Shown: positions 11,050-63,721 of the stretch, piece after piece
How positions within the stretch are numbered: the stretch's first letter is position 1
Layout: every line of letters starts with the position of its first letter
DNA from: Allobosea sp. CRIB-10
GTDB lineage: Bacteria; Pseudomonadota; Alphaproteobacteria; Rhizobiales; Beijerinckiaceae
Assembly: GCF_900112185.1 (NCBI RefSeq)
Contig: NZ_FOKP01000006.1
Coordinates: 62,001-126,000 of the forward strand
DNA: 64,000 nt
Direction of reading: 5' to 3'
Notes under the pieces: model-generated
Databases searched by the model: none
The model's input: the letters and a program-made list of their open reading frames with translations, nothing else
What the model was told of the DNA's origin: nothing
Translations under genes and position numbers: made by a program

Positions 11050-11151
11050 TAATTGCCGATCGCCTCTTATGGGATCGGCCGGTCAAGCCGGCGTCGGTGA
11101 GACCTCGGAATGGCCGACTTGTACCCATGTTGCTCAATGGAGGATGTGGCT
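11050..11151 (+). promoter_or_regulatory. ROSE-like RNA thermometer in the hsp20 leader
   Basis: The leader just before the start reads TTGCTCAATGGAGGA. This matches the ROSE signature: a UYGCU box three to four bases before an anti-SD-pairable GGAGG. A small helix CCAT/ATGG brackets this box, and stronger stems occur upstream (GGCCGGTCAAGCCGGC near 11079). ROSE elements control small heat-shock genes in rhizobia. The 5' limit is only approximate, and folding was not computed. Confidence 0.45.
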
Positions 11152-26734: not shown

Positions 26735-26811
26735 TGGTAGCGGGAGAGGGACTCGAACCCCCGACACGCGGATTATGATTCCGCTGCTCTAACCAGCTGA
26801 GCTACCCCGCC
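26735..26811 (-). tRNA. tRNA-Met (anticodon CAT)
   Basis: 77 nt. Acceptor GGCGGGG pairs with TCCCGCT, D arm GCTC/GAGC, anticodon stem GCGGA/TCCGC with loop ATCATAA, T arm GGGGG-TTCGAGT-CCCTC, encoded CCA end. The anticodon is CAT; the sequence resembles the elongator tRNA-Met of alphaproteobacteria. The 3' end points left, toward the accessory stress region. Confidence 0.95.
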
Positions 26812-45229: not shown

Positions 45230-47020
45230 TCAGGCAGCCCCGGCCTGCGCCGAGCGCATCCGCGCGAGCGTCTCCAGCTCGGCGACGAGGCCTTCCGGCG
45301 TGGGGCAGGGGATGATGCCGAGCCGGGCGAGATCGTCGGTGACGTCGACCGGCAAGCCGGAATTCGAATCCTCCGGGATCTGGTTGAGGCGGCCGCCGAT
45401 GCAGACCGGCAGGTTCGTGCCGGCGCGCTCCAATGCTGCGAGCACCTCGGTCGCGAAGCGCAAGGCGATGCCGTTATAGGTGCTGATCGCGATGACGTCG
45501 CAGCCATTGGCCAGGGCAATGGCGACGAGATCGTCGGGATCGGCCGAGGTGCCGCCGTCGACCGCCTCTGCGTCCAATCGCGTGAGCAGGTGCTCGATCA
45601 GGCTCTTGCCGTGCTCGTGCACGTCGCTGCTGGCGATGCAGACCTTGAGGCCGGCCTGCCCGATGCCGATGCGGGCGGGCATTGCTACCTTGTCGAGCCA
45701 GCCTTCCGTCTCGTGCCGGAGCTCCTCGACCCATTCTGCCTCGACCACGGCGCGGCGCCCGCCCCAGGCGGCACGGTCGGACGCGCCGGAGCCGTAGAGC
45801 GCCTCCAGCCGCCGCGGGCCGATGCGGCGCAGCGCCAGCATGATCGCGGCGGCGTCGGCGATGTCGACGCCGAGATCGGCAAGGCCGGTGAGGACCCGGC
45901 AGCGGAATTTGTGTGCGCCGGCGACGAGGCTGTCCGCCATCGCATCGACAGGGGCGAGGTCGATCAGGCCGAGGCTGCCGGAGGCGTGCTCGACCAGCCG
46001 GCCGGCGAAGGTCTGGGCGTCGATGATCTCGTCGGTGTCGGGAATGCGCTCGTTCTCGGTGACCGGCACGGGGTTGATCGCGTGACCGCTGTGCTGGCGG
46101 CGCAGCGACCAGATATCGGCCTGCAGATAGCTGGCGAGGCTGGCGAAATTGCCGGCCGGCGTCGACTTGTAGCTGACCGTATTGCCGAAGATCATGCTGC
46201 CGGGGGTGTCGGTCACCTGCATCAGCGCATGATGGAAGGCGAGCCGCACCAGCGGCGCGGTGAAATGGTGGCCGTAGCAATGCGAGGCGCGGGCGCCGAT
46301 CAGCTCCTCGACGATGTATTTCTCGATCAAGACCATGCCGAGCGCCGAACTCATGTCGGAGAACAGGCCGGCGAAGCCGTCGTCGAGATTGGAATGGACG
46401 AGCACCTCGACCGGCTGGGCCGCGATCAGGCCGAGCGCCGTCACGGTCGCCTCGGTCGTGGCGACGTCGTCGTCCCAGTCCGGCAGGCGGAAGGTGAAAT
46501 ACTGGCCGAGATTGCCGACGGTGGTGACGCCGGCCGCCAGCGCGGCCCGAGTGTTTTCGACCGCGCCGGGCAGGCCGAGCATGAAGTCGCCGAAATGCGC
46601 CGCGGCCGGGACGACGCCGGTGATGCGGGAAAAATCCTCGGGGCCGGAGAGCACGATGCCGGTGCCGCGCGGGCGCTTGTCGCGCTCGGCAAGCGGATAG
46701 CCCATCGACCAGTCGAGCGTGATGCCGAAGCGGTCGACCCCGAAGCCGAGCTTCGCGCAGCTCTCGTGCACCGTCCGGATCGCCTCCAGCGTGCGTTCGA
46801 CGCTGCGGAAGCCGATATGGGCGTGCTGCATGATGCGGCCTTCGCCCGCCATGCGCCGCTTGTAGTCAGCCTCGCAGGCGACGCCAGCCGTATCGAGGAA
46901 GAGGTTGCGGCCGACCTGCCAGTCGCGCGCCATGGCGGCGCCCTGCGCCAGCAGCTCGGCGCCCGGCCGCAAATCCGGCGGGACGAGGTCGGCGAGCTTC
47001 GGCAGCGCGGGCGCGGTCAT
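45230..47020 (-). CDS. Cobalamin-dependent mutase-like protein, single chain (GlmE-like barrel plus B12-binding domain)
   Basis: 596 residues. The N-terminal about 450 residues look like a glutamate-mutase-type TIM barrel (GEGRIMQHAHIGFRSVERTL, AALAAGVTTVGNLGQYFTFR, YKSTPAGNFASLASYLQADI). The C-terminal 130 residues are a B12-binding Rossmann fold with DVHEHG (the DxHxxG base-off histidine), ISTYNG in place of the usual SxL, and CIGGRL. In clostridial glutamate mutase the two parts are separate subunits; here they are fused. Last gene of the importer/AspDH operon, 12 bases after AspDH. Substrate unknown; catalytic activity is unproven. Confidence 0.75.
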   Translation of the reverse strand: MTAPALPKLADLVPPDLRPGAELLAQGAAMARDWQVGRNLFLDTAGVACEADYKRRMAGEGRIMQHAHIGFRSVERTLEAIRTVHESCAKLGFGVDRFGITLDWSMGYPLAERDKRPRGTGIVLSGPEDFSRITGVVPAAAHFGDFMLGLPGAVENTRAALAAGVTTVGNLGQYFTFRLPDWDDDVATTEATVTALGLIAAQPVEVLVHSNLDDGFAGLFSDMSSALGMVLIEKYIVEELIGARASHCYGHHFTAPLVRLAFHHALMQVTDTPGSMIFGNTVSYKSTPAGNFASLASYLQADIWSLRRQHSGHAINPVPVTENERIPDTDEIIDAQTFAGRLVEHASGSLGLIDLAPVDAMADSLVAGAHKFRCRVLTGLADLGVDIADAAAIMLALRRIGPRRLEALYGSGASDRAAWGGRRAVVEAEWVEELRHETEGWLDKVAMPARIGIGQAGLKVCIASSDVHEHGKSLIEHLLTRLDAEAVDGGTSADPDDLVAIALANGCDVIAISTYNGIALRFATEVLAALERAGTNLPVCIGGRLNQIPEDSNSGLPVDVTDDLARLGIIPCPTPEGLVAELETLARMRSAQAGAA

Positions 47021-47032
47021 CGATGTCCTCTC

Positions 47033-47827
47033 CTAGACCGCGATGCGATCGAATTGCCGGCGGATCGCCGCGGTGAGGCTGGCGGCCGTCAGGGCCGAGG
47101 TCTTGGGGTTGGCGGGGGCGGGCAGGTTGACGAAGCTCAGCCGCGCCGTGCCGAGCGCACTCTCCGCCTCGATCTCATGGGTGTTTCCGGCTGCCTTCGG
47201 GTCGGAGACGATGCGGACCGAGAGGCGGTCGTGCCCGACCGCCAGCGCGATGGTCAGCCCGACATTGAGGTTCTTCGGATAGAGCCTGGCGGCTTCGCGC
47301 GCCGTGCCCTCATAGAGTGCGATCTCGATCTGTGCGGCCTTCTCGGCGAGGCCAAGCGCAGCGAGTTCCGGACCCCAGGCAGCCGGCGGCTTGCGCGAGG
47401 TGTAGCGGACGCGGGCGTCTGCCGTCTCGCGCAATGCGGCGAGATAATCGAGGCCGCCGACCGCGCCGGAGGGCACGATCAGCCGCGTCCCGCCCTGCTC
47501 GGCGGCTTCGGTGAGGCGGGCGAGGAGATCGTCGTCGGCGAGCGCTCCGGTCGAGGCCGGCAGCACCGGAATGCCGGCGGCGAGAACCGCGGGAAGGGTC
47601 TGGGCGACCGCAGCCTGTCCGGCGACCTCGACGACCAAAGCAGGACCCCAGGCAAGGAGCTCATCGATGCTGGCGACGAGGGCGATGCCCTCCGGAACGC
47701 TCGCGCGGCTCGGCGAATCCGGCCGCAGCAGGCAGGCGAAGGAGAAGCCCTCGCTCCCGAGCCGGGCATGGATGTCCCGGGCGATCGTGCCGAAGCCGAT
47801 CAGGCCGATCCGTCGTTCGCTCGCCAT
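47033..47827 (-). CDS. Aspartate-dehydrogenase-like protein (NadX family)
   Basis: 264 residues. Rossmann start RIGLIGFGTIARDIHARLGS. The AspDH hallmark GAVGGLDYLAAL is present, as are the catalytic His in AAGNTHEIEAES and PKNLNVGLTIALA. The family oxidatively deaminates L-aspartate to iminosuccinate; some members serve catabolism. Placed between a cupin and the B12 mutase, it may act on the mutase product or its precursor. Start at ATG 47827 with GAGGGA upstream; a TTG five codons earlier is possible. Confidence 0.82.
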   Translation of the reverse strand: MASERRIGLIGFGTIARDIHARLGSEGFSFACLLRPDSPSRASVPEGIALVASIDELLAWGPALVVEVAGQAAVAQTLPAVLAAGIPVLPASTGALADDDLLARLTEAAEQGGTRLIVPSGAVGGLDYLAALRETADARVRYTSRKPPAAWGPELAALGLAEKAAQIEIALYEGTAREAARLYPKNLNVGLTIALAVGHDRLSVRIVSDPKAAGNTHEIEAESALGTARLSFVNLPAPANPKTSALTAASLTAAIRRQFDRIAV

Positions 47828-47838
47828 CACCGATTCCC

Positions 47839-48351
47839 TCAAGGTTGACGCTGGTCCTTCGGCTGGGCCGCGAAGACCGTCTGGCGCTCGATCTCAAGCA
47901 CGTTCTCCGGCCGCGGGAAATTCTCCGGGGCCGGCTCGCCTGCCATACGCGGGCGGCCGATCAGGCGGAAGAAGTCTTCGAGGCCGTTCGGCACGATCAG
48001 CCAGACCCAGTGCAGATCCTCGGTGCCGTCGTTGATGAACATGTGGCGGCGGCTCTTGCCGACGAAGATCGCGGTGCCCGGCACGGCCGGCACGTCCTGG
48101 CCGTCGAGCACGGCGCGGCCCTTGCCCTTGAGGAAGTAGATGACCTCCTCATGGCGGTCATGGCTGTGCTCGCGGACATGGCCGCCGGGCGGTACGGTCT
48201 GGGTGCCGAAGGCGAGCGGATTGTCCATCCTGACCTTGGACGGGTCGAGCGCGACCTCGATATGGCCGTTGGCCGGGACGGGCTGCCAATAGCTCGTCGC
48301 GCTGCCGGGCTGGACGACGAAGGTCTCGCCGGGTTCGTGGATCTCGCTCAT
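47839..48351 (-). CDS. Cupin domain protein
   Basis: 170 residues with a full cupin: GGHVREHSHDRHEEVIYFLK (HxHxxxEE-type metal site), GRAVLDGQDVPAVPGTAIFV, and second-motif His in SRRHMFINDGTEDLHWVWLI. Could be a small metal enzyme (isomerase, decarboxylase or dioxygenase) in the same pathway. Lies between the ABC ATPase and AspDH with 11-12 base gaps, so firmly in the operon. Confidence 0.85.
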   Translation of the reverse strand: MSEIHEPGETFVVQPGSATSYWQPVPANGHIEVALDPSKVRMDNPLAFGTQTVPPGGHVREHSHDRHEEVIYFLKGKGRAVLDGQDVPAVPGTAIFVGKSRRHMFINDGTEDLHWVWLIVPNGLEDFFRLIGRPRMAGEPAPENFPRPENVLEIERQTVFAAQPKDQRQP

Positions 48352-48363
48352 GGTGAGGCTCCG

Positions 48364-49973
<1,610 letters not shown>

Positions 49974-49977
<4 letters not shown>

Positions 49978-50804
49978 CGGTTGCGCAGCCTCGGATTGAG
50001 CGCATCGTTCAGTCCCTGGCCGACCAGCGAGACCGAGAGAATGGTCAGCAGGATGGCGACGCCAGGAATCGCCGAGACATACCATTCGCTGCGCAGCACC
50101 TTGCGGCCCTGGCCGATCAGGTTGCCCCAGGAGGCGATGTTCGGGTCGGAGAGATCGAGGAAGGCGAGGGCGCTCTCCAGGAGGATCGCGGTCGCCATGA
50201 CGACGCTGCCATAGACGATGATCGGGGCGAGCGCGTTGGGCAGGACCTCGCGGAAGATGATCCAGCGATTGGTCAGGCCGAGCGTGCGGCAGGCCTGGAC
50301 GAATTCGCGGTTGCGCAGGGTCAGGAACTCCGCCCGCGTCAGGCGCGCCACAGCCGGCCAGGAGACGACGCCGATCGCGATCGTCACCGCCGTCATGTTC
50401 GAGCCGACGACCACGACCAGCACCAGCAGCAGGATGAAGTTCGGCAGGGTCTGGAAAGCTTCGGTGAGGCGCATCAGCACGTCGTCTGTGAGACCACCGT
50501 AGAAGCCGGCGAGCGCGCCGATGACGATGCCGATCGCGATCGCGATCAGGGTCGAGACGATGCCCATCAGCAGGGTGGTGCGGGCGCCATGGGCAATCTG
50601 GGCAGCGATGTCGCGCCCCGATGCGTCGGTGCCGAGCAGGAAGCGGCCGGCGGGATTGGGCCATTGCAGCGGCCGGCCGGCGAGGCCGAGCGGATCGCGC
50701 GGATAGAGCACGTCGGCGAACAGGGCGAGGCCGACGATGACGACGAGCAGGACGAGGCCGAGCATGGCGGCCGGGCTCATCAGGAAATGCTTGAGCGCCT
50801 TCAT
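49974..50804 (-). CDS. Dipeptide-type ABC transporter permease (DppC family)
   Basis: 276 residues, about six membrane helices, with GTDASGRDIAAQIAHGARTT and the EAA loop EFVQACRTLGLTNRWIIFRE characteristic of DppC/OppC. Pairs with the DppB-like permease, four bases upstream. Confidence 0.95.
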
Positions 50805-50807
50805 GGC

Positions 50808-51785
50808 TCAGGCTCCCGCGCTCATGCGGGGATCGAGCCGCGCATAGATCAGATCGACGACGAAATTCACGCAGATGACCATGACGGCGGAGACGAAGAC
50901 GATGCCGAGCAGGGTGTTGAGATCGCGCTGGACCACGGATTCATAGGCGAGGCGGCCGATGCCCGGCAGCGAGAACACGCTCTCGATCACCACAGAGCCG
51001 CCGAGCATGGTGCCGGCCTGCAGGCCGATCAGCGTCATCATCGGGAGGAGCGCGTTGCGCAGCACATGCCGACGGACGATCTCGCCGCGGGTCAGCCCCT
51101 TGGCGCGGGCGGTGCGGACGAAATCGAGCGTCGAGACCTCCAGCATCGAGGCGCGCATGATGCGCAGATAGATGGCGAGGAAGATCAGGGCGAGCGTGAT
51201 CGTCGGCTGGATCAAATGGCGGGCGATGTCGAGCACCAGCCAGATACCGGTCGCGCCCGAGCCGATCTCGTAGAGCCCGCCCGGCGGCAGCCAGGCCAGC
51301 CAGATCGAGAAGACGACGATGCTCATCAGGCCGAGCCAGAAGGACGGCGTCGCGTAGAAGAGCAGACCGAGCAGCGAGATCAGGGTGTCGGCCCAGCCGT
51401 TGACGCGCTGCGCCGAGACGATGCCGAGCAGCATGCCGGCGAAGAAGGCGAAGCTCAGCGCCGAGAGCATCAGCATCAGCGTCGCCGGCAGCCGCTCCAG
51501 GATCACGGTCGCGACCGGCTTGTTGTAGATGGCGGAGAAGCCGAGATCGAGCCGGACCAGCCGCCAGAGATAGTCGAGCAGGCGCACGGCCGTGCTGCCT
51601 TCCAGCCCGTAGAAGCGCCGCAGCTCGGCCGCCTGCGCCGGGTCGCCGCCGCCCATCTGCGCCATCAGCGCATCGACGGTGTCGCCGGGGGCGAACTGCA
51701 GGAGGATGAACAATCCGGCGAGCAGGATGAGCAGCGTCGGAATGCTGCTCAGCAGGCGTCGTCCGGCCAGTTTCAGAATGTGCAT
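50808..51785 (-). CDS. Dipeptide-type ABC transporter permease (DppB family)
   Basis: 325 residues: N-terminal LILLAGLFILLQFAPGDTVD, the long periplasmic loop, and the EAA loop DFVRTARAKGLTRGEIVRRH followed by VLRNALLPMMTLIGLQAGTM, diagnostic for DppB/OppB. The 133-base gap to the binding protein gene may hold an attenuator-type structure; I see no separate gene there. Confidence 0.95.
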   Translation of the reverse strand: MHILKLAGRRLLSSIPTLLILLAGLFILLQFAPGDTVDALMAQMGGGDPAQAAELRRFYGLEGSTAVRLLDYLWRLVRLDLGFSAIYNKPVATVILERLPATLMLMLSALSFAFFAGMLLGIVSAQRVNGWADTLISLLGLLFYATPSFWLGLMSIVVFSIWLAWLPPGGLYEIGSGATGIWLVLDIARHLIQPTITLALIFLAIYLRIMRASMLEVSTLDFVRTARAKGLTRGEIVRRHVLRNALLPMMTLIGLQAGTMLGGSVVIESVFSLPGIGRLAYESVVQRDLNTLLGIVFVSAVMVICVNFVVDLIYARLDPRMSAGA

Positions 51786-51918
51786 GAGCCGTGGTCTTCA
51801 AGCGCCGGACATGCCGGGATGGCCGGCATCCGAGAGCGTCGGGCGGGTCTTGTCAAAAGGCGATGGTCAGGCGAGGAGCGGCCACCCGTCGAGGGGCGGC
51901 CGCTCCGGCTCGGCCGGA

Positions 51919-53523
51919 TCAGGGCTCGAACCACAGATCCGCCCAATGGCTCGACGGCCAGCGCGGATTGTTGTGGTGGTTCTTCAGCTTCTTGCTGGTG
52001 ACCGAGATGAACTGGCGCTCGGTCGCCATCCACAGCGGCACTTCGGTGTTGAGCAGGTTGACGAGCTCCGGATAGGCGGCCTTGCGCTTGGCCGGATCGA
52101 TCTCGAAGGCGGCGTCGTCCATCATCTTGTCGGCCTTGGGGTCGACCCAGCCCCACTGGTTGGTGAAGGCGGTGCCCTTCGGGCTGCCCGAGCGGTACCA
52201 GACCATGGTGCTGATCGCCGGGTCGGCGCGGTAGATGTGCCAGCCGGTCGAGAGATCGTAGTCCCAGTCGCGATAGACCGCGGTGAGATAGGTCGCGGCG
52301 TCCGGACGCTGGAGCTCGACCTTGATGCCGACCTGCTGCAGCGACTGCTGGATGAAGGTCGACCAGAGCGGGATATCCTCGCCGAAGGGCGGGCTCAGCA
52401 TCTTCACCGAGAAGCGCACCCCGCCGGCGCCGCGCTTGAAGCCGGCCTCGTCGAGCAGCGCATTCGCCTTCTTGACGTCGAAGGCATAGTCCGGCGCGCC
52501 GGCCTTGTAGAAATTGGTCGAGACCGACGGGATCGGCCCATGGGCGCGCTTGCCGTTGCCGTACAGGAAGTTCTCGATGAAGAAGTCGGTGTCGACCGCG
52601 TGGATGATGGCGCGGCGCACGCGGACGTCCGAGAGCTCCTTGCGGCGCAGGTTGAACTCGATCGTGTTCTGGAAGGGCTGGCGCTCATTGCCGCGCGAGG
52701 AGACCTCGAAGCGGGCATCCTTGCCGAGCCGATCGATGTCGGCGAGCGGCAGCGAGGAATAGTTGCTCATATGGACCTGGCCGGCCTCGATCGCGGCGGT
52801 CGCGGCGGCCTTGTCGGTGATGAAGCGCCAGACGATCTTGTCGAGATAGGGAAAGCCCTTGCGCCAGTAGTCGGGGTTGCGCTCGGCGATGACGTATTGC
52901 CCGCGCTCATACTGGGCGAACTTGAACGGGCCGGTGCCGATCGGAGCGACATTGGCCGGGTTGTCGAGGATGTTGCTGCCCTCGTAGACATGCTTCGGCG
53001 CGATGTAGCCGAGGTCCGGCGCCGCGCCCATGAACAGGTCCATCGGCATCGGGCGGCTGTAGCGGAAGATCGCGGTGTGGGCGTCGGGCGTGTCGACCGC
53101 TTCCAGCGCCGAATGCAGCGCGGTGCCGTAGTTCAGGTGCTTCTTCCACAGTTCCATCGCCGTGTACTGCACGTCGGCCGAGGTGAAGGGCTTGCCGTCA
53201 TGCCATTTCACGCCCTCGCGCAGCTTGATGGTGATGGTCTTGCCGTCGGGCGAGCCTTGCCAGCTCGTCGCCAGCATCGGCTCCAGCTCGCCCTTCTCGT
53301 TGAGGTCGACCAGTGGCTCCATGATCTTGGAGGCGATGACGTAGACGCCGGTCGAGGCGCGCAGGGCCGGGTTCAGGATGCGCTGCTCCTGCGGCATGTG
53401 CACGGTGATGGTGCCGCCGCGCTTGGGTTCCTGGGCGAAGGTCGTGTTCGGCAGCGCGGCAGCCATTGCGAGCGCGCCGGCGCTGGCGAGCAGGCGGCGC
53501 CGTGTCGGATATGTCGTGGTCAT
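51919..53523 (-). CDS. Periplasmic dipeptide/oligopeptide-type substrate-binding protein (SBP family 5)
   Basis: 534 residues. Twin-arginine-like signal (TRRRLLASAGALAMAAALPN), then family-5 features: GGTITVHMPQEQRILNPALR, MLATSWQGSPDGKTITIKLR (the SBP_bac_5 core), EGVKWHDGKPFTSADVQYT. Family 5 binds peptides but also opines, nickel and glycosides. Strong GGAGGGG before the ATG. Begins the importer part of the operon. Confidence 0.94.
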   Translation of the reverse strand: MTTTYPTRRRLLASAGALAMAAALPNTTFAQEPKRGGTITVHMPQEQRILNPALRASTGVYVIASKIMEPLVDLNEKGELEPMLATSWQGSPDGKTITIKLREGVKWHDGKPFTSADVQYTAMELWKKHLNYGTALHSALEAVDTPDAHTAIFRYSRPMPMDLFMGAAPDLGYIAPKHVYEGSNILDNPANVAPIGTGPFKFAQYERGQYVIAERNPDYWRKGFPYLDKIVWRFITDKAAATAAIEAGQVHMSNYSSLPLADIDRLGKDARFEVSSRGNERQPFQNTIEFNLRRKELSDVRVRRAIIHAVDTDFFIENFLYGNGKRAHGPIPSVSTNFYKAGAPDYAFDVKKANALLDEAGFKRGAGGVRFSVKMLSPPFGEDIPLWSTFIQQSLQQVGIKVELQRPDAATYLTAVYRDWDYDLSTGWHIYRADPAISTMVWYRSGSPKGTAFTNQWGWVDPKADKMMDDAAFEIDPAKRKAAYPELVNLLNTEVPLWMATERQFISVTSKKLKNHHNNPRWPSSHWADLWFEP

Positions 53524-53570
53524 GGTCCCCTCCATTGTCGTGATTGCTTGTGATCGTCGTCGGCGAGCGG

Positions 53571-54425
53571 TCATTCCCGCCGGGCGGATGCCTCCCAGCC
53601 GATCAGCGCGCCGTCGACGCCTGCGCAGAGCAGGGCGTTCGGGCCGGTCCATTCGGCGAAGGGCGCCGCTGCCTCGATGTCCGCGATCGCCAGGACGATG
53701 CCGCAGCGCGGCAGCGGCTCACCGGCCTGCCGCCCCCAGCGTGTCGCGAAGTCCGTTTCATCGACGAAGACCAGATCGGCGCCGCGCGGGCGCATGGCGA
53801 CGGTATGGACGCCGGCAGTTGCGCCGACCGGCAGATTAAGCAGCTTGCCGCAGAGTTCGGCTTCGGCCCGTGGATCGGCGGCGACGATCTCGATCCGTTT
53901 CAAAGCCCGGGCGCCGTTGCGATGCGCAGTCAGGCTCGGCAGCCAGACGGTATCGCGAGTGAGATGCTGGCAGGCGAACAGGCGCACCCCGGCCGGCGCC
54001 GGCTCCAGCGGCCATTGAAAGATGCGGAAGCCTGCCTCGCCCATGCGCCCGCCATCGAGCTCGACGGGGCGGCGGAATTCGAACGGGCCGGTGCTGTCGG
54101 CAAAGCCGTCGCGTTTCAGGCCGGCGAGGCCGGCAGCGGCGTCGTCGGTGCGCATGGCCAGGCGCTCGAGCCCGGCGCCATCGGCCAGGAAGCTGCGGGT
54201 CGGGGCGTTGAACTCGGTGGCGGTGAGCACGCCGAGGAGTTCGAGATAGTCGTCCTCGAACATGATCGTGTGGTTGCCGGTGCCGAGATAGTCGCTGTGC
54301 AGACCGCGCGGCGAGACCGTGAAACCCAGCGCCTGCAAGCGCGCAGCCGACGCCGACAGCTCGCTCACGGCGACAACGATGTGGTCGAGCCCGAGGACGT
54401 GGTCGCGCATCCCTGGAGGTTCCAT
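53571..54425 (-). CDS. VOC/glyoxalase-like superfamily protein
   Basis: 284 residues. The N-terminus GLDHIVVAVSELSASAARLQ, then LQALGFTVSPRGLHSDYLGT and HTIMFEDDYLELLGVLTATE, is the glyoxalase-like (PF13468-type) start, and a second betaalpha-beta-beta-beta unit follows. A His and Glu ligand pair is visible (LDHIVV, DDYLELLG). Possibly a metal-dependent lyase, epimerase or dioxygenase of the pathway. First gene of the operon, with a regulator-site candidate about 50 bases upstream. Confidence 0.72.
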   Translation of the reverse strand: MEPPGMRDHVLGLDHIVVAVSELSASAARLQALGFTVSPRGLHSDYLGTGNHTIMFEDDYLELLGVLTATEFNAPTRSFLADGAGLERLAMRTDDAAAGLAGLKRDGFADSTGPFEFRRPVELDGGRMGEAGFRIFQWPLEPAPAGVRLFACQHLTRDTVWLPSLTAHRNGARALKRIEIVAADPRAEAELCGKLLNLPVGATAGVHTVAMRPRGADLVFVDETDFATRWGRQAGEPLPRCGIVLAIADIEAAAPFAEWTGPNALLCAGVDGALIGWEASARRE

Positions 54426-55528: not shown

Positions 55529-55660
55529 TCAGCCTCTCTGTCCGGCCGGTCTGCGGTCGCGTCCGGCCTCTCGACGCTTCATGCTTGAAAGCGCCTCGCC
55601 CGCAAAAATCAACCACCGATCGCCATTGCTGCAAGCAGTGTGCGCACTCATGGATGCAAC

Positions 55661-56440
55661 ATGACACGAATCGGCTTCCTCGGCGTCGGCCATCTCGCGG
55701 AAGAGATGATCACCGGGCTCCTGCGCAGTGATCTACCAGCGGGTGAGATCATCCTGTCGCCGCGCGGGCATGGGCCGAAGCTTGCAGAACGCCACGGCAT
55801 CGCGCTTGCCAGCGACAATGGCGCGCTCGTTGCCGCCGCCGACATCGTGCTGCTGGCGACGCGCCCGGGCGATGCGATCGTCGCGGTGACGGGGCTGGGC
55901 TGGCGGCCTGGCCAGATCCTGGTCTCGGCCTGCGCCGGGGTGTCCCTGGCGGAGTTGCGCGCGGCAGCCGGTCCTGCGGAGGTGGCGCGGATCATGCCGC
56001 TGACGGCGGCCTCGATCGGCGCGAGCCCGACGACGGTCTATCCCGACCTGCCGGCGCTGCGGCCGCTGCTGACGCGGCTCGGCGCGGTCATCCCGCTCGC
56101 CGACGAAGCCGGATTCGAGACCGCGTCGGTCAGCGCCGCGATCTATGGCTGGGCCCAGGTGCTGATCGGGCTCGGACGCGACTGGTCGCTCGCCCATGGC
56201 CTGGCACCGCAGACGGCGCGGCAGCTGGCGGCGGAGACCTTCGTCGCCGCCGGCCGGATGATCGCCGAGCGGCCGGAGGCGGTCGAGGCGCTGCTCACGA
56301 GCCTGGCGACGCCGGGCGGCATCACCGAATGCGGCCTGAAGGTGCTCGAAGCGGGGGACGTCGAGGCGAGCTGGATCGCCGCCTGCGACGCCGTGCTGGA
56401 GAGGCTGACGGGCGCACCGGCGAACACCCGCCGCGCCTGA
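55661..56440 (+). CDS. Pyrroline-5-carboxylate-reductase-like NAD(P)-binding protein
   Basis: 259 residues. IGFLGVGHLAEEMITGLLRS gives the Rossmann motif and LLATRPGD the second nucleotide-contact region. ARIMPLTAASIGASPTTVYP and TSLATPGGITECGLKVLE correspond to ProC motifs; the C-terminal signature in true ProC is similar (ATPGGTT). It probably reduces an imine or oxidises an amino acid in this pathway and is not the housekeeping ProC. Start at ATG 55661. Confidence 0.8.
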   Translation: MTRIGFLGVGHLAEEMITGLLRSDLPAGEIILSPRGHGPKLAERHGIALASDNGALVAAADIVLLATRPGDAIVAVTGLGWRPGQILVSACAGVSLAELRAAAGPAEVARIMPLTAASIGASPTTVYPDLPALRPLLTRLGAVIPLADEAGFETASVSAAIYGWAQVLIGLGRDWSLAHGLAPQTARQLAAETFVAAGRMIAERPEAVEALLTSLATPGGITECGLKVLEAGDVEASWIAACDAVLERLTGAPANTRRA

Positions 56441-56445
56441 ACGGC

Positions 56446-57198
56446 TCAGCCCTCCACCGATTTGAAGACGTGGCCGCCGACCGCCTGGTCGGTCGGCGAG
56501 ATCTCGATCTCGGTGACGTCGACATGCTCAGGCAAGGCGAGCACCGCCGCGATGGTCTCGGCGATGTCCTGCGGCTGCAGCGCGCGGACATGGCCGTACA
56601 TGGTCTCGTTGAGGCGCTCGCGGTCACCGCCGAAAGCGCGCAGATAGATCTCGGTCTCGACCCGCCCCGGCGCGAGATCGGTGACGCGGACATTGCTGCC
56701 GGCGAGATCGTAGCGCAGCGAGCGGCAGGCATGGGCGAGCCCGGCCTTGGCGCCGCCATAGGCCGAGGTCCCGGCGAGCACGCCGCGGGCTGCTGTCGTG
56801 GTGATGTTGACGACATGGCCGCGCCGGCGCGCCACCATGCCGCCGAGCAAGGCATGCATCAGCAGCATCGGCGCGGTCAGGTTGACGGCGATCGTCTCGG
56901 CGATCTCGTTGGCGCTTTGCTCGTAAAGCGGCTTCACCGTCGCGACCATGCCGGCATTGTTGACGAGCACGTCGATCTCGGCCCCGCCGAGCCCGGCGAC
57001 GATCGCGTCGGTGTCGCGGACATCGGCGACGACGGGCACGACGCCGAATGCGTCGACCACGCCGGCGAGCGCCTCGCGGCTGCGGGCGACGCCGTAGACG
57101 GTGAGGCCCATCCCGGTCAGGCGGGCGCAAATCGCGGCGCCGATGCCGCGCGAGGCGCCGGTGACCAGGGCGGTGCGATAGGGAAGGGGCGTTGCCAT
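56446..57198 (-). CDS. Short-chain dehydrogenase/reductase (SDR)
   Basis: 250 residues: TALVTGASRGIGAAICARLT (TGxxxGIG), VLVNNAGMVATV (NNAG), and active-site Ser/Tyr/Lys in ITTTAARGVLAGTSAYGGAK. The Tyr-x-x-x-Lys is present as YGGAK. Classical SDR oxidising or reducing an alcohol/ketone. Lies 22 bases after the 3-hydroxyacyl-CoA-dehydrogenase-like gene in the same unit. Confidence 0.9.
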   Translation of the reverse strand: MATPLPYRTALVTGASRGIGAAICARLTGMGLTVYGVARSREALAGVVDAFGVVPVVADVRDTDAIVAGLGGAEIDVLVNNAGMVATVKPLYEQSANEIAETIAVNLTAPMLLMHALLGGMVARRRGHVVNITTTAARGVLAGTSAYGGAKAGLAHACRSLRYDLAGSNVRVTDLAPGRVETEIYLRAFGGDRERLNETMYGHVRALQPQDIAETIAAVLALPEHVDVTEIEISPTDQAVGGHVFKSVEG

Positions 57199-57220: not shown

Positions 57221-58156
57221 TCAGAGGGCGGCGCGCTGCGTCATCACGCGCAGCAGGTCGACGAGGCCGGCATCGCGCTGGTCGCGCAGTTCGGCGTCGC
57301 TGCGATTGCGAATGGCCTCGCGAACCTCCTGGGAGACGCGCGCGATCGTCGCCGGCTCCAGCCTGGCATCGCCGAGATCGTCCCAGATGTCCTGATAGGT
57401 CTTGCCGTATTTGGTCAGGAAGGCCTCGATGCCCTCGGCGTTGAGGTGGTTCGAGATGAACGAACCCTGCAGCGTCCATTTCGGGCCGGGGCCGTAGCAG
57501 AAGGCGCGGTCGACATCCTCGGCGCTGGCGACGCCGCTCTCGACCAATGCGATCGCCTCGCGCCACATCGCGCCCATCAGCCGGAGCGCCAGATGCCCGG
57601 TGATCTCCCTGCGCAGCACGGCCGGCTTCTTGCCGAGCCCATCGTAGAAGGCGCGCGTCTGCTCGATCACCTCCGGCGCCGTGTCGCGGCCGCCGACGAT
57701 CTCCACCAGCGGCATCAGGTGGACCGGGTTGAACGGGTGGGCGAGCACGATGCGCTGCGGCCGGGCGCAGTTCGCCTGCATGTCCGAGACCAGCAGCGCG
57801 GAAGATGAGGAGGCGATCACGACGTCGTCGCCGACATGGCGCTCGATCGCCGCGAGCAGCTCCTGCTTGAGATCGAGGCGTTCGGGGCCCGATTCCTGAA
57901 CGAAGGCGACGCCGGCGAGCGCCTTGCCGAGATCATCCGAGAAGCGGACAGGGCCGCGCGCCGTGCGGGCCGGCGCCAGCCGTTCGAGATCGTCGATCAG
58001 CGCCGGATGCAGCGCCTGGAAGGCCTGCCAGCGCGCCGGGTCGGGGTCGTAGCAGGAGACCTCGTAGCCGTGATGGGCGAAGGTCGCCGCCCAGCGCTGG
58101 CCGATGGTGCCGAGCCCGACCACGCCGATCGGCCCGCGCATCGCGTTCACATCCAT
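57221..58156 (-). CDS. 3-hydroxyacyl-CoA dehydrogenase-like / carnitine 3-dehydrogenase-like enzyme
   Basis: 311 residues: Rossmann GVVGLGTIGQRWAATFAHHG, acidic VQESGPERLDLKQE and the catalytic-site LAHPFNPVHLMPLVEIVGG. The C-terminal helical domain continues LALRLMGAMWREAIALVESG. HPFNPVxxxPLVE is typical of L-carnitine or L-gulonate 3-dehydrogenases as well as short-chain 3-hydroxyacyl-CoA dehydrogenases, so the substrate may be a free beta-hydroxy acid. Ends two bases before the hydrolase gene on the same strand. Confidence 0.88.
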   Translation of the reverse strand: MDVNAMRGPIGVVGLGTIGQRWAATFAHHGYEVSCYDPDPARWQAFQALHPALIDDLERLAPARTARGPVRFSDDLGKALAGVAFVQESGPERLDLKQELLAAIERHVGDDVVIASSSSALLVSDMQANCARPQRIVLAHPFNPVHLMPLVEIVGGRDTAPEVIEQTRAFYDGLGKKPAVLRREITGHLALRLMGAMWREAIALVESGVASAEDVDRAFCYGPGPKWTLQGSFISNHLNAEGIEAFLTKYGKTYQDIWDDLGDARLEPATIARVSQEVREAIRNRSDAELRDQRDAGLVDLLRVMTQRAAL

Positions 58157-58158
58157 GA

Positions 58159-58989
58159 TCATGTCCTCGTCCCGGCGGCGGAAGACCTACCGCGCAAAAA
58201 GTCCAGCACCGCGTCGCGGTAGCGTTCGGGCTCGGCCCGCATGGCGTAGTGGCCGCCGCGCGGCAGCACAGCGAGCTCCGCCTGCGGGATGCCGTCGGCG
58301 AGGCGCTGCGAGAGATAGGCTGGGGTGACGATGTCGTCGGCCGCGACCACGACGCGAACAGGGCAAGCGATCTCTGCCAACCGATCCTGCGCATCATGAC
58401 CGAGCACGGCGAGCATGCGCTCGCGCACCACCGCGGCATCCGTCGGCTTCGAGCGGGCGGCTGCCGCCTGCAGCTCCGCCTCGACGACGGCGTCATTGGC
58501 GTCGAGCCAATAGGGTGCGTTGAGGAGCGTCACCGCATGGCGGCGATAGGCGTCGATGCCGAGCTTATCGAGCAACTCGATCCGCCCGGCGAAGAGCCGT
58601 CGCATATAGGCGCAGGGGCGGGCGAAGGTCGCCGACAGCACCAGCCGCGTGATACGCTCCGGCTGGGCGAGCGCCAGGTTCTGCGCGATGGCGCCGCCGG
58701 TGGAGTGGCCGAGGATGGCGGCGCTGGCGATGCCGAGATGGTCGAGCAGGCCGGTCAGGTCCGCGCGCATCGCGTCGATGCTGGTGGGGCCCTCCAAGAC
58801 CGAGGAACCGCCGACGCCGCGATGGTCGTAGGTGACGACCTGGAAATAGGGCGCACAGATTTCGGCGAAGGCGTTCCAGAACGACGCCAGCCCGCCCAGG
58901 CCCGAGATCAGCACGAGCGGCGGGCCGTCGCCGCGCAGCGTGTAGGCGAGGCTTCCGCCATCGGCGAGAGGAGCGAGCCCGGTTCTCAT
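58159..58989 (-). CDS. Alpha/beta hydrolase
   Basis: 276 residues. Oxyanion region LISGLGGLASFW, DHRGVGGSS, nucleophile Ser in AILGHSTGGAIAQNLALAQP, acid in VVAADDIVTPA and His in LPRGGHYAMRAEP. Resembles enol-lactonase/RutD-like hydrolases that open lactones or cleave carbamates. Overlaps the DUF3830-like gene by four bases. Confidence 0.9.
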   Translation of the reverse strand: MRTGLAPLADGGSLAYTLRGDGPPLVLISGLGGLASFWNAFAEICAPYFQVVTYDHRGVGGSSVLEGPTSIDAMRADLTGLLDHLGIASAAILGHSTGGAIAQNLALAQPERITRLVLSATFARPCAYMRRLFAGRIELLDKLGIDAYRRHAVTLLNAPYWLDANDAVVEAELQAAAARSKPTDAAVVRERMLAVLGHDAQDRLAEIACPVRVVVAADDIVTPAYLSQRLADGIPQAELAVLPRGGHYAMRAEPERYRDAVLDFLRGRSSAAGTRT

Positions 58990-59855
58990 GCGGCCTCGTC
59001 GAGGGCGGAGCGGGTGGCTGCGTTGACCGCCGACCACGGGATGCGCAGGTCGAGCCAGGCCGCCAATCGGCCGGCGCAGAGGATGGCTTCGTCGACCAGC
59101 GCCGCGAGCGGGACGTCGTCGCGGCCGAAGGCGGCCTCCAGCGCGAAGATCGCCGCGGCGCTCTCGCCGAGATGGCAGAAATCGCGCAGCCGGGTCGCGG
59201 CCTTGTTGGAGGCGACGGCGGCGATGCGGCGGGAGATGCGCGGCTCTTCCGTCGCAAGGCCGCCGCGGACCCACCAGAGCAGTTCGTGCAGGATGCGCGC
59301 CTCCGATTCCGCCAGGAAGAGCGGACCGGCTGGATGCATGGTCGCGCGGGAGGCCAGCAGAGCCTCGATATCGGCGGGCGCGGCGCTCCAGAGCTCTTGC
59401 CGGAGGACGAGGAGTTCGGCCGGAACCTGCGAGGGCCGCGGTTCCGGCGCCTGCACGCCTTCGACCGGCACGAGATTGCCGGCGAAGAGCCTGCGCCCGT
59501 GCTGCTCGCGCAAGCGAAGGCCGAGCGCCTGGAGTTCCGGCAACCCGCCCTCGATCCGGCCGAGCAGGGTGACCTGCGCCGTCTCGGCCTGGAGCGGCGC
59601 GAAGATCAGCTCGAGGAACTGCCGCGCCGGCCAGTACAGGAAGGCGCCGGGCTGCGCCTCCATGACGTCGACGCCGCCCTCGGCATCCTCGACGAAAGGC
59701 GCATGCCAGTAGATGTGCTGGCCGGCGATCTTCGGGGTGTGGAGCTGGAGTGCGGTGGGCAAGCTCGCGGCGAGCGTGGCAAGCGTGCGAGGCGCCCGCG
59801 CCGTATCGCAGGCGATGCGCCAGCGCTCGTCGCCGACGATCAGGTCGAGTTTCAT
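58986..59855 (-). CDS. DUF3830-like protein with extra C-terminal helical domain
   Basis: 289 residues. Residues 1-140 look like DUF3830, a cyclophilin-like barrel: QLHTPKIAGQHIYWHAPFVE, VMEAQPGAFLYWPARQFLEL, RLFAGNLVPVEG. About 130 further residues form an unassigned helical domain (LFLAESEARILHELLWWVRG, AAIFALEAAFGRDDVPLAAL). DUF3830 genes are often near amino-acid racemase, hydantoinase and peptide-transport genes. Its fused C-terminal part is unusual. Confidence 0.65.
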   Translation of the reverse strand: MKLDLIVGDERWRIACDTARAPRTLATLAASLPTALQLHTPKIAGQHIYWHAPFVEDAEGGVDVMEAQPGAFLYWPARQFLELIFAPLQAETAQVTLLGRIEGGLPELQALGLRLREQHGRRLFAGNLVPVEGVQAPEPRPSQVPAELLVLRQELWSAAPADIEALLASRATMHPAGPLFLAESEARILHELLWWVRGGLATEEPRISRRIAAVASNKAATRLRDFCHLGESAAAIFALEAAFGRDDVPLAALVDEAILCAGRLAAWLDLRIPWSAVNAATRSALDEAA

Positions 59856-59902: not shown

Positions 59903-60226
59903 TCAGGGCTTGGGCTTGAAAAAGGAGACGGGCTTGAGGATCTGGTTGCGCATGTCGAGCAGCGGGTCGGCCTCGACGACCTGCCGGCGATAGGCCTGCC
60001 AGGCGTGATCGGCCTCCATCGCGTCGCGGCGCGTCTCGCGGTCGGCCAGGCTGTCGTACTGCCAGAGATGCACGACGCGGCTGAGATCGCCGATATGGGT
60101 CTGGAAGAAGCCGAAGGGCTCGCCGAGATACTGCCGCTGCATCGGCAGGCCGACATCCTCATAGAGCTTCAGGAAGTCGTTCAGGCGGTTCGGCCGAGCC
60201 GTATAGACGCGGTGGTCGAAGATCAT
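59903..60226 (-). CDS. NIPSNAP family protein
   Basis: 107 residues: IFDHRVYTARPNRLNDFLKL, then GEPFGFFQTHIGDLSRVVHL, WQYDSLADRETRRDAM. These are the ferredoxin-like NIPSNAP features, including the HLWxY motif. In catabolic clusters such proteins have undefined, sometimes isomerase-like roles. First gene of the minus-strand unit running to the SDR. Confidence 0.88.
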   Translation of the reverse strand: MIFDHRVYTARPNRLNDFLKLYEDVGLPMQRQYLGEPFGFFQTHIGDLSRVVHLWQYDSLADRETRRDAMEADHAWQAYRRQVVEADPLLDMRNQILKPVSFFKPKP

Positions 60227-60477: not shown

Positions 60478-61464
60478 ATGAGGAATTCACCGACGGTGGA
60501 CGAGCAGCTCGACATGCTCGGGCGGATGGTGGCGGTGCGCCATCTCGAGGAGCGGCTCGGCGAGCTGCACAAGGCCGGCAAGACGCGCGGGCCGATCCAT
60601 CGCTGCGACGGCCAGGAGGCGGTCGGCATCGGCGCGACCGCGATGCTGGGCGATGACGACCTGCTCACGAGCACGCATCGCGGCCATGCGCATTATGTCG
60701 GCAAGGGCGTCGGCCTGCACCCGATCGTCGCCGAAATCCTCGGCCGCGCCACCGGCGTCTGCGCCGGACGGGCCGGGCACATGCTGATCGCCGATGTGAA
60801 GAAGGGGCTGCTCGGCGGCAACGCCATCGTCGGCGGCGGCATTCCGGCGGCGACGGGCTTCGCCGTCTCGCTGCAGATGAGGAACCGCGCCGACGGCGGC
60901 CAGCGCGTCGCCATGTGCATCTTCGGCGACGGCGCGGCGCAGACCGGCATCTGCCATGAATCGATGAACATCGCGGCGCTGTGGACGCTGCCCGTCGTCT
61001 TCGTGCTGGAGCACAACCAGTACGGGCTGACCGCGCATCATTCGACGCAGTCCTCGGTGCCCGACCTCTCCGTCCGGGCGGCCGGCTATGGCATGCCGAG
61101 CGAGATCGTCGACGGCAACAACGTGATCGCCGTCCATCGCGCCGTCGGTGCCGCGGTCGAGCGTGCCAGGCGCGGCGAGGGGCCCTCGCTGATCGAGGCC
61201 AAGACCTATCGCATGGTCGGCTTCTCGACGAGCGATGTCGGCGGCTATCAGAAGGACGAAGACCTTTCCCTCTGGCGCAAGCGCGATCCGATCGTGCTCG
61301 CCCACGCCATGCTGGCCGACAGCGTTTCGGCCGAGCGGCTCGACGCGGTCATGGCGGCGGCGCGCGCCGAGGTCGATGCGGCGGTCGAGCAGGCGCTGAA
61401 CGACCCGCTGCCGAGCTTCGCCGACCATGCGCCGAGCGCGCCCTATACCGTTGCGGGAGCCTGA
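60478..61464 (+). CDS. TPP-dependent dehydrogenase E1 component alpha subunit (acetoin/2-oxoacid type)
   Basis: 328 residues: MVAVRHLEERLGELHKAGKT, GRAGHMLIADVKKGLLGGNA, and the TPP motif GDGAAQTGICHESMNIAALW through VFVLEHNQYG. The length and the GHMH/GHML region fit acetoin dehydrogenase alpha (AcoA) or a short branched-chain E1-alpha. Decarboxylates a 2-oxoacid or cleaves acetoin, transferring the acyl to lipoyl-E2. First gene of the plus-strand operon. Confidence 0.92.
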   Translation: MRNSPTVDEQLDMLGRMVAVRHLEERLGELHKAGKTRGPIHRCDGQEAVGIGATAMLGDDDLLTSTHRGHAHYVGKGVGLHPIVAEILGRATGVCAGRAGHMLIADVKKGLLGGNAIVGGGIPAATGFAVSLQMRNRADGGQRVAMCIFGDGAAQTGICHESMNIAALWTLPVVFVLEHNQYGLTAHHSTQSSVPDLSVRAAGYGMPSEIVDGNNVIAVHRAVGAAVERARRGEGPSLIEAKTYRMVGFSTSDVGGYQKDEDLSLWRKRDPIVLAHAMLADSVSAERLDAVMAAARAEVDAAVEQALNDPLPSFADHAPSAPYTVAGA

Positions 61465-62452: not shown

Positions 62453-63721
62453 ATGAGCCATGAGATCACGCTCGCCGGCGGAGCCGGCGAATATATGGAG
62501 AGCGCAACCGTCGTCTCCTGGGCGGCCAAGATCGGCGACCCCGTCAAGGCGGGTGACGTCGTCGTCGTGGTCGAGACCGCCAAGGCCGCGACCGAGATCG
62601 AGGCCGGGCGCGACGGCGTCCTCGCCGCGATCCTTGCGCCGGAGGGGGCGGAGGTCGGCATCGGTGCCGTGCTCGGGCGCATCGCCGACAGCACTTTTGC
62701 GGATGAAGCACCCGTCGCGGTGCCGCAGCCGGCAGTCGCGGGGCCTGAGGCAGTGGTTTCGGACGCATCGGCCAAGGCCGAGGCAGCCACTCGGCGCATC
62801 AGCATCTCGCCGCTAGCCCGGCGATTGGCGCGTCAGGCCGGTCTCGATATCTCCAGCATCGCCGGCACCGGCCCGGGCGGGCGGATCAAGAGCCGCGACA
62901 TCGAGCGGACCTTGCGAGAGCAGACGGACGCCGCGTCGGCGGCTGCCCCCGTCGCGGTCGTGCCTTCGCCTGCCGTCGCGAGGACAGGCTCGGCCGCTCC
63001 TCTAGCGCTGCTCCATGGCTTCGGCGCCAATGCCGCGGCCTGGAACATGGTGCGCCCGCATCTCGACGGGCGCCCGGTGCTGACGCCGGAGCTGCCGGGC
63101 CATGGCCGGGAGCCGGCGCTGACATCACCGTCGCTGGAGGCGCTCGCCGAGGCCGTGCTCGGCCAGATCGAGGCCAATGGTGCGCGCGAGTGCGATCTCG
63201 TCGGGCACTCGCTCGGCGGGGCCGTCGCCGCGGCGCTGACGGCGAACCTCTCGGTGCGCGTGCGCTCGCTGACGCTGATCGCGCCGGCGGGGCTGGGTCC
63301 GGAGATCGATAGCGGCTTCCTCGCCGGCTTCCTGTCGGCGCGGACGGTGGAGAGCCTGATGCCCTGGCTGGAGCGGCTCGCGGCCGATCCCGGCCGGCTG
63401 CCGCGCGGCTATGCCCAGGCGGTGCTGCGCGAGCGCGAGCGCTTCGGCGTCGGCGCGGCGCAGGCCGAGATCGCGCAAAGGCTGTTTCCGGACGGGACGC
63501 AGGCGATCAGGATCGGCGCCGATCTCGACCGCTTCACGGGGCCGCTCAAGGTGGTCTGGGGCAAGGGCGACCGCATCATTCCGCAGGCGCATCAGGACGA
63601 GTTGCCCGGCCATGCCGCCTGCCACCGGCTCGGCGGCGTCGGGCACATGCCTTCTATCGAAGCGCCGGCCCTCGTGGCGCAGCTGATCCTGCAGAACGCG
63701 CGCAGCGCCGAGGCGAGCTGA
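62453..63721 (+). CDS. E2 component: lipoyl domain fused to alpha/beta hydrolase (AcoC-like)
   Basis: 422 residues. Lipoyl domain 1-80, with the lipoylated Lys in VVVVETAKAATEI; E1/E3-binding domain RISISPLARRLARQAGLDIS to GRIKSRDIERTL; then an alpha/beta hydrolase fold (LALLHGFGANAAAWNMVRPH, nucleophile DLVGHSLGGAV, Asp in GKGDRIIP, His in GGVGHMPSI). It lacks the HxxxDG acyltransferase domain of normal E2. The same architecture occurs in acetoin dehydrogenase AcoC. No E3 gene in the window. Confidence 0.9.
   Translation: MSHEITLAGGAGEYMESATVVSWAAKIGDPVKAGDVVVVVETAKAATEIEAGRDGVLAAILAPEGAEVGIGAVLGRIADSTFADEAPVAVPQPAVAGPEAVVSDASAKAEAATRRISISPLARRLARQAGLDISSIAGTGPGGRIKSRDIERTLREQTDAASAAAPVAVVPSPAVARTGSAAPLALLHGFGANAAAWNMVRPHLDGRPVLTPELPGHGREPALTSPSLEALAEAVLGQIEANGARECDLVGHSLGGAVAAALTANLSVRVRSLTLIAPAGLGPEIDSGFLAGFLSARTVESLMPWLERLAADPGRLPRGYAQAVLRERERFGVGAAQAEIAQRLFPDGTQAIRIGADLDRFTGPLKVVWGKGDRIIPQAHQDELPGHAACHRLGGVGHMPSIEAPALVAQLILQNARSAEAS

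What the first reader, a model, noticed from the sequence alone, without database searches (positions are those of the whole stretch)
45230..54425. Operon joining a peptide-type importer, a cupin, an aspartate-dehydrogenase-like enzyme and a fused cobalamin mutase
Seen: eight co-oriented genes with short gaps, ending in a 596-residue protein with a glutamate-mutase-like barrel and a C-terminal B12 domain (DVHEHG and IGGRL). Known: glutamate mutase normally has two separate subunits, and AspDH deaminates aspartate-like amino acids. Inferred: an imported amino acid or peptide-like compound is carbon-skeleton rearranged and oxidatively deaminated. One testable scheme is glutamate to 3-methylaspartate, deamination to a methyl-oxaloacetate, decarboxylation (cupin or VOC) to 2-oxobutyrate, then oxidation by the E1/E2 complex nearby. 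I know of no characterised pathway with this gene set.
Basis: partly seen in the sequence, partly recalled or inferred. Interest (0 to 1): 0.85.

Follow-up and report, generated by a model that had tools for sequence, protein, structure and literature searches.

The report
Unstudied vitamin-B12 mutase in catabolic cluster
A Bosea gene cluster carries a one-piece vitamin-B12 enzyme of an uncharacterised family that shares only its predicted fold with glutamate mutase and nearly always occurs with a small imine-reductase-like protein, pointing to an undescribed way of breaking down a nitrogen-containing compound.

The parts
45230..47020 (-). MUT: 596-aa single-chain B12-dependent mutase-like protein; barrel (about 16-420) plus C-terminal B12-binding domain (about 455-590)
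47033..47827 (-). AspDH-like NAD(P)-dependent dehydrogenase (264 aa; possible TTG start at 47842)
   Evidence: PF01958, PF03447; NF009828 213.5 bits over its cut-off 177; aligns over most of its length with AspDH 2dc1 and over 56-263 with TM1643 1h2h
47839..48351 (-). single-domain cupin, 170 aa
   Evidence: PF07883; same cluster in 47 of 80 fetched loci, as is AspDH
48364..49977 (-). fused two-domain ABC importer ATPase (Opp/Dpp/Gsi type)
   Evidence: PF00005 x2, PF08352; start from gene
49974..50804 (-). ABC permease, OppC/DppC type
   Evidence: PF00528, PF12911
50808..51785 (-). ABC permease, OppB/DppB type
   Evidence: PF00528
51919..53535 (-). family-5 solute-binding protein
   Evidence: PF00496; start from gene
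53571..54425 (-). VOC (Glyoxalase_3) protein
   Evidence: PF13468; relatives at 29-31% identity near MUT in L072 and L074
54764..55528 (-). GntR/FCD transcriptional regulator
   Evidence: PF00392, PF07729; beside P5CR in the Rhizobium/Mesorhizobium clusters
55640..56440 (+). P5CR-like NAD(P)-dependent imine reductase/dehydrogenase, closest partner of MUT (my caller prefers a start at 55661)
   Evidence: PF14748, PF03807; 121.2 bits against the 254 cut-off of NF005063 and 115 against 196.75 of ProC TIGR00112; co-occurrence 19 of 19
56446..57198 (-). SDR oxidoreductase
   Evidence: PF00106; same cluster in 34 of 80 loci
57221..58162 (-). 3-hydroxyacyl-CoA/carnitine/gulonate-dehydrogenase-like protein
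   Evidence: PF02737, PF00725; nearest solved: lambda-crystallin 3ado
58159..58989 (-). alpha/beta hydrolase, RutD/PcaD-like
   Evidence: PF00561; RutD model 184 bits, cut-off 238.5; nearest solved RutD 3v48
58986..59855 (-). U289: cyclophilin-like plus helical domain with the fold of the Pictet-Spenglerase McbB
59903..60226 (-). NIPSNAP-domain protein (107 aa)
   Evidence: PF07978; start from gene
60478..61464 (+). E1 alpha, TPP-dependent (my caller prefers a start at 60496)
   Evidence: PF00676
61467..62441 (+). E1 beta
   Evidence: PF02779, PF02780 (read from 61464); start from gene
62453..63721 (+). E2: lipoyl + E3-binding + alpha/beta-hydrolase domains, acetoin-dehydrogenase type
   Evidence: PF00364, PF02817, PF12697; NF011457 321.7 bits over its cut-off 307

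Best explanation
MUT (45230-47020) is most likely an adenosylcobalamin-dependent radical mutase of an uncharacterised family: one chain, GlmE-like barrel plus a GlmS-like B12 domain, with a substrate site that differs from that of glutamate mutase. It works with the neighbouring P5CR-like protein, which I take to reduce or oxidise a C=N bond just before or after the rearrangement. In Bosea both belong to a catabolic pathway at 45.2-63.7 kb for an imported nitrogen compound (amino/imino-acid-, betaine- or alkaloid-like). Proposed flow, inferred throughout: Opp-type uptake; SDR/3HCDH oxidation of hydroxyl groups; imine chemistry by the P5CR-like protein and the McbB-fold protein; 1,2-rearrangement of the carbon skeleton or amine by MUT; NAD-linked loss of nitrogen from an aspartate-like product by AspDH, with cupin and RutD-like hydrolase on the deaminated product; cleavage of the resulting 2-oxo compound or acyloin to acyl-CoA by the acetoin-type E1/E2. 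Shown by computation: predicted fold, B12 motif, gene content, synteny, co-occurrence. Inferred: every reaction, its order and the substrate.
For: Fold: confident model; GlmE is top by VIA Z and the B12 domain matches GlmS. D466 and H468 in 112 of 112 sequences (107 distinct; 47 of 48 clusters at 75% identity), G471 in 45 of 47 cluster majorities. The own genome has a cobalamin adenosyltransferase (PF02572). P5CR-like: 19 of 19 MUT genomes against 4 of 131 others, Fisher p 1.6e-20 with genomes counted as independent; two of those four do have a MUT by profile search. It is adjacent (<400 bp) in 27 of 48 MUT clusters, in 11 of them with a 4-nt overlap by my start calls. Twelve pathway genes occur together in 19 of 80 loci, and all are present, rearranged, in G227, whose MUT is 46% identical. 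Imine/amine chemistry: AspDH, P5CR-like, RidA in L063, McbB fold, amino-acid or Opp-type importers, ProRac/DAO/DHDPS near several MUTs.
Against: No substrate was identified and no reaction tested. hhalign with GlmE is not significant, so the mutase reading rests on a predicted fold plus DxHxxG. In several alphaproteobacterial genomes MUT and P5CR sit beside helicase and Fe-S-assembly-like genes with no pathway nearby (for example L076, L079-L081, L100-L102), so the pair may have a function of its own. No P5CR-like gene was found by tblastn (E 1e-15) within the fetched flank in 18 of 48 clusters; for some it is elsewhere in the genome (G145, G195, G232). AspDH is missing at E 1e-25 from 8 of 19 MUT genomes.
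Confidence: 0.6

Rival explanations
1. One reading: MUT is a fused glutamate mutase; glutamate to 3-methylaspartate, AspDH to methyl-oxaloacetate, cupin or VOC decarboxylation to 2-oxobutyrate, E1/E2 to propionyl-CoA.
For: Best VIA fold match is GlmE; a Glu aligned with GlmE E330, in a non-significant alignment, is in all 47 cluster majorities (E322); AspDH lies one to four genes upstream of MUT, co-directional, in 47 of 80 loci (immediately upstream in 6).
Against: 0 of 24 members match PF06368; profile comparison not significant; no arginine seen at my placed R66, R100, R149; the scheme needs no P5CR, SDR, 3HCDH, hydrolase or McbB-fold protein; AspDH absent at E 1e-25 from 8 of 19 MUT genomes; E2 is of the acetoin type.
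Confidence: 0.1
2. MUT and the P5CR-like protein form a stand-alone two-enzyme unit (salvage or repair of one common metabolite) that has been joined to different catabolic clusters in different lineages.
For: The pair is kept with no pathway nearby in several genomes; 4-nt overlaps in 11 clusters; partner clusters differ: AspDH/cupin/E1-E2; ProRac/DAO/DHDPS; PhyH; Opp importer with a sarcosine-oxidase-type protein.
Against: The same large gene set recurs in Rhizobium/Mesorhizobium, Bosea and the distant G227, which suggests one pathway.
Confidence: 0.2
3. The B12 domain serves something other than a mutase: corrinoid methyl transfer or light/redox sensing.
For: B12-binding domains of this fold occur in methionine synthase, MtaBC and CarH, which appear in the fold lists.
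Confidence: 0.06

Closest known systems
Glutamate mutase GlmES (methylaspartate mutase)
   Different: One chain, barrel first and B12 domain last; no PF06368; no significant sequence or profile similarity; expected arginine claw not seen; different gene context
2-methyleneglutarate mutase of Eubacterium barkeri (from memory, no call)
   Same: Recalled as a single chain of similar length with a C-terminal B12 domain
Lysine 5,6- and ornithine 4,5-aminomutases
   Different: Those use PLP bound to a lysine (recalled); the only lysine among the invariant columns of A3 is K54 in the barrel (46 of 47 cluster majorities), none in the B12 domain
Acetoin dehydrogenase complex AcoABC
   Same: E2 above the NF011457 cut-off; E1 alpha/beta adjacent
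   Different: Embedded in a cluster with MUT, P5CR-like, AspDH and cupin; substrate unknown
Pictet-Spenglerase McbB
   Same: Fold of U289 over 277 of 289 residues
   Different: McbB is not among the sequence matches of the U289 profile up to E 10; sits in a catabolic-looking cluster, not a biosynthetic one
Hydroxyproline catabolism (ProRac/DAO/DHDPS/ALDH)
   Same: Such genes stand near MUT in Ancylobacter/Brucella-type loci, L057 and a Phyllobacterium plasmid
   Different: That pathway as known (recalled) needs no B12 enzyme; these genes are not among those annotated in the Bosea cluster

Membership tests
Glutamate mutase epsilon subunit (PF06368) | match to the Met_asp_mut_E model | tested here: not met
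   0 of 24 diverse members at E 0.01; no match in the own genome at E 0.001
Glutamate mutase epsilon subunit (PF06368) | GlmE barrel fold | tested here: met
Glutamate mutase epsilon subunit (PF06368) | arginine claw R66/R100/R149 and E171 (residue roles recalled; numbering checked on the alignment) | tested here: inconclusive
   hhalign not significant; placed by strand order, the positions hold A67/H68 or Q68, G107, F143-G144 and N170 in most clusters
Glutamate mutase epsilon subunit (PF06368) | conversion of glutamate to 3-methylaspartate | not testable with these tools
   needs an enzyme assay
AdoCbl-dependent mutases with a DxHxxG B12 domain | D-x-H-x-x-G with the cobalt-ligating His | tested here: met
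   D466 and H468 in 112 of 112 full-length homologues (107 distinct); G471 in 45 of 47 cluster majorities, Ala in 2
AdoCbl-dependent mutases with a DxHxxG B12 domain | TIM barrel over a Rossmann-like B12 domain | tested here: met
   (predicted model)
AdoCbl-dependent mutases with a DxHxxG B12 domain | adenosylcobalamin dependence and radical rearrangement | not testable with these tools
   the own genome has a cobalamin adenosyltransferase, which is only permissive
PLP/AdoCbl aminomutases (KamDE, OraSE) | PLP-binding lysine in the B12-domain region (recalled) | tested here: inconclusive
   no invariant lysine in 456-596; K472 in 38 of 47 cluster majorities; PLP could be bound otherwise
Aspartate dehydrogenase (NadX type) | NAD-binding and Asp_DH_C domains; subfamily model cut-off | tested here: met
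   PF03447, PF01958; NF009828 (subfamily) 213.5 against 177, but below the cut-offs of the equivalog models shown
Pyrroline-5-carboxylate reductase ProC (TIGR00112) | equivalog score | tested here: not met
   115 bits against 196.75; PF14748 and PF03807 present
Acetoin dehydrogenase E2 (NF011457) | equivalog score | tested here: met
   321.7 against 307
McbB-type Pictet-Spenglerase | fold over both domains | tested here: met
McbB-type Pictet-Spenglerase | catalytic Glu97 and Pictet-Spengler activity | not tested
   Glu97 seen only in a passage of PMC9366743; no residue-level alignment to McbB was available

The most novel reading that the evidence does not exclude
MUT founds a new class of adenosylcobalamin enzyme that rearranges an imine- or ammonium-type substrate, coupled to a dedicated imine reductase, inside an undescribed aerobic degradation route that opens N-heterocycles with an McbB-fold enzyme run in the breaking direction (retro-Mannich or retro-Pictet-Spengler).
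Probability: 0.25. Interest if true: 0.9.

Novelty: new variant of a known kind. Interest (0 to 1): 0.68.

Why it matters
Few kinds of adenosylcobalamin-dependent rearrangement are known (general knowledge). This family is large: the 120 best of 1513 matches (E 1e-3) are full-length relatives at 61% identity or more (the other matches were not shown and may include proteins that share only the B12 domain), and a divergent branch carries source names from Chloroflexota and Deltaproteobacteria. Its barrel has no Pfam family, and sources call it 'methylmalonyl-CoA mutase cobalamin-binding subunit' or 'hypothetical protein', so it is probably mis-annotated widely. The tight pairing with a P5CR-like reductase gives an experimental handle, and the conserved cluster would let a substrate screen identify a new degradation pathway in soil-, plant- and algae-associated bacteria.

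Tried and rejected
Glutamate-mutase membership by sequence: hhalign with two GlmE rows and with six GlmE against 51 MUT rows gave nothing significant; the best local stretch pairs E322 with GlmE E330.

N-demethylation as the theme: demethylase-like families stand near many MUTs, but against 40 control regions they are not enriched (14 of 48 clusters against 6 of 40, p 0.09). Of the probes, DMGDH-like, MTTB, P450-Fer2, sarcosine-oxidase alpha and the flavin oxidoreductase were Pfam-checked; 'Rieske' (L152) is my reading of the sequence. A PhyH family is nominally enriched (9 of 48 against 1 of 40, p 0.016), DAO19 too (7 against 0, p 0.012), DHDPS weakly (5 against 0, p 0.044), ProRac not (4 against 1, p 0.24); three control probes were not (ALDH 4 against 0, p 0.083; SDR 11 against 6; LysR 1 against 1). 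16 probes and three pooled tests, no correction, probes chosen after seeing the loci, controls only from G-handle genomes: these are leads.

A missing desaturase: the 3-ketosteroid-dehydrogenase-like FAD protein found in 27 of 80 loci has only weak, partial matches (31-34% identity) in this genome.

Papers: 10 searches of PMC; nothing listed describes this family or cluster, but I saw listings only (20 of 10,792, 20 of 1,179), apart from a term search in PMC4113996 (no hit) and passages of PMC9366743. Most subscription papers are not held.

Rows dropped or thin: of 115 MUT sequences three under 540 aa were left out (L066, L089 and the interrupted L103); the 112 hold 107 distinct sequences, the window protein twice. 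L144, L145 and L148 were poorly gene-called. One search counts genomes at fixed E-value limits; the A3 profile was run on six of the 150 genomes. Only 80 of 188 confirmed genome loci were held. Foldseek ranks methylmalonyl-CoA mutase, not GlmE, first by E-value.
Full report
WHAT IS THERE. Eight minus-strand genes at 45230-54425 encode a VOC protein, a family-5 binding protein with two permeases and a fused ATPase, a cupin, an AspDH-like dehydrogenase and a 596-residue B12 protein, here called MUT. Upstream lie a GntR regulator and, divergent from it, a P5CR-like gene; then SDR, 3HCDH, an alpha/beta hydrolase, U289, NIPSNAP, and divergent E1 alpha, E1 beta and E2 up to 63721. The window lies in a Bosea-like genome: named Bosea proteins are among the best matches of MUT, at 94-97% identity.

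IS IT A GLUTAMATE MUTASE? By fold, yes in kind; by sequence, not demonstrably. PF06368 finds 3 of 142 class genomes at E 0.001 (two over the cut-off; the third hit lies in a methylmalonyl-CoA mutase, PF01642) and not this genome. Profile comparison with six GlmE sequences is not significant; its best local stretch pairs E322 (47 of 47 cluster majorities) with GlmE E330. GlmE numbering was checked on the PDB alignment; the roles of R66, R100, R149, E171 and E330 are recalled. Placed by strand order, the claw positions hold A67/H68 or Q68, G107, F143-G144 and N170 in most clusters; three clusters have Arg at 65. Residues in at least 45 of 47 cluster majorities include H66, R72, D103, R113, H142, D145, N170, Q173, R178, H209, D214, E322 and R325: a different, His/Asp-rich set. 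This placement is not a superposition.

PARTNERS. In the 150 genomes of the order (the same handles as far as the answers list them), MUT (E 1e-100) is in 19 and the P5CR-like protein (E 1e-25) in 23, including all 19; Fisher p 1.6e-20 with genomes counted as independent. Of the four others, G228 and G254 have a MUT by profile search, G261 and G275 show only B12-domain hits. AspDH: 11 of 19 against 21 of 131; U289: 8 of 19 against 3 of 131. In 48 clusters of MUT loci (single linkage at 75% identity), a P5CR-like gene is adjacent (<400 bp) in 27 and within the fetched flank in 30; 11 clusters show a 4-nt overlap by my start calls. The protein scores below the cut-off for ProC, so its substrate need not be pyrroline-5-carboxylate.

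NEIGHBOURHOODS. From 80 genome loci (188 confirmed, 80 held) and later fetches, several arrangements recur: A, Bosea, as in the window; B, Rhizobium/Mesorhizobium, cupin-AspDH-hydrolase-MUT-E1-E2-NIPSNAP-U289-3HCDH-SDR, P5CR, GntR and a Liv-type importer, with a 3-ketosteroid-dehydrogenase-like FAD protein; C, Ancylobacter/Brucella and others, cupin-SDR-AspDH-DAO-ProRac-NIPSNAP-MUT-DHDPS-ProRac-hydrolase; D, Rhodobacteraceae, P5CR/MUT with SDR, E1/E2, U289, RidA or a PhyH dioxygenase; E, other alphaproteobacterial genomes with MUT-P5CR beside a DEAD-box helicase and Fe-S-assembly-like genes (Pfam-checked in L076). All twelve genes of set A/B are together in 19 of 80 loci. In G227, whose MUT is 46% identical, the whole set is present but rearranged. 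On a Phyllobacterium plasmid GntR, P5CR and MUT stand within 10 kb of proline racemase, ALDH, FAD oxidoreductase and dapA genes. The common thread, as I read it, is amine/imine chemistry.

MECHANISM. I commit to the following, as inference: an imported amino/imino compound is oxidised by SDR/3HCDH; the P5CR-like and McbB-fold proteins handle a C=N intermediate; MUT performs an adenosylcobalamin radical rearrangement of the adjacent skeleton or amine; AspDH removes nitrogen from an aspartate-like product; cupin and RutD-like hydrolase process it; acetoin-type E1/E2 yields acyl-CoA. Only predicted fold, motif, gene content, synteny and co-occurrence are shown.

TESTED AND NOT HELD. Enrichment of N-demethylase genes near MUT is not significant (14 of 48 against 6 of 40, p 0.09). 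PhyH, DAO19 and DHDPS are nominally enriched, uncorrected, with probes chosen after seeing the loci. Ten literature searches listed nothing on this family or cluster (calls named under Tried and rejected); the library lacks most subscription papers.

VERDICT. The protein is a GlmE-fold B12 enzyme of an uncharacterised family with a near-obligatory P5CR-like partner in a conserved, apparently undescribed catabolic cluster. The substrate is open and glutamate is unlikely.

Noticed in passing
window 11056-11158 (+): ROSE heat-shock thermometer RNA above the gathering score (61.9 bits against 45).
   Followed up: no
window 26735-26811 (-): tRNA-Met (CAT), the only tRNA ARAGORN reports in the window.
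   Followed up: no
L083 1477-4080 (-), genome G028: A frame in which a part that looks to me like a B12 domain precedes a GlmE domain (PF06368 over the cut-off): apparently a natural S-E fusion in the opposite order to MUT; the same genome also has a MUT.
   Followed up: partly
L084 162-2817, genome G076: A GlmE gene 52 nt downstream of an ORF that looks to me like an aspartokinase.
   Followed up: no
G114 and G761 (L144, L145, L151, L152): Two MUT homologues in one genome; one G761 copy (L144) is only about 33% identical to the window protein.
   Followed up: no
L121 7705-9474 (-), genome G228: A divergent MUT (32% identical to the window protein) with P5CR, an Opp-type importer and a sarcosine-oxidase-type protein; some relatives carry source names from Chloroflexota, Deltaproteobacteria, Sulfitobacter and Maritalea.
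   Followed up: partly
L113, L115, L117: Sets of E1/E2-type subunits, a ProC-like gene, SDR, U289, RidA and an FAD amine oxidase without a MUT in the fetched stretch (L117 has E1 alpha/beta but no E2 called), so the U289-E1/E2 module may have a pathway of its own.
   Followed up: partly
L103 (genome G234): MUT is interrupted by a stop codon in this assembly; cause not examined.
   Followed up: no
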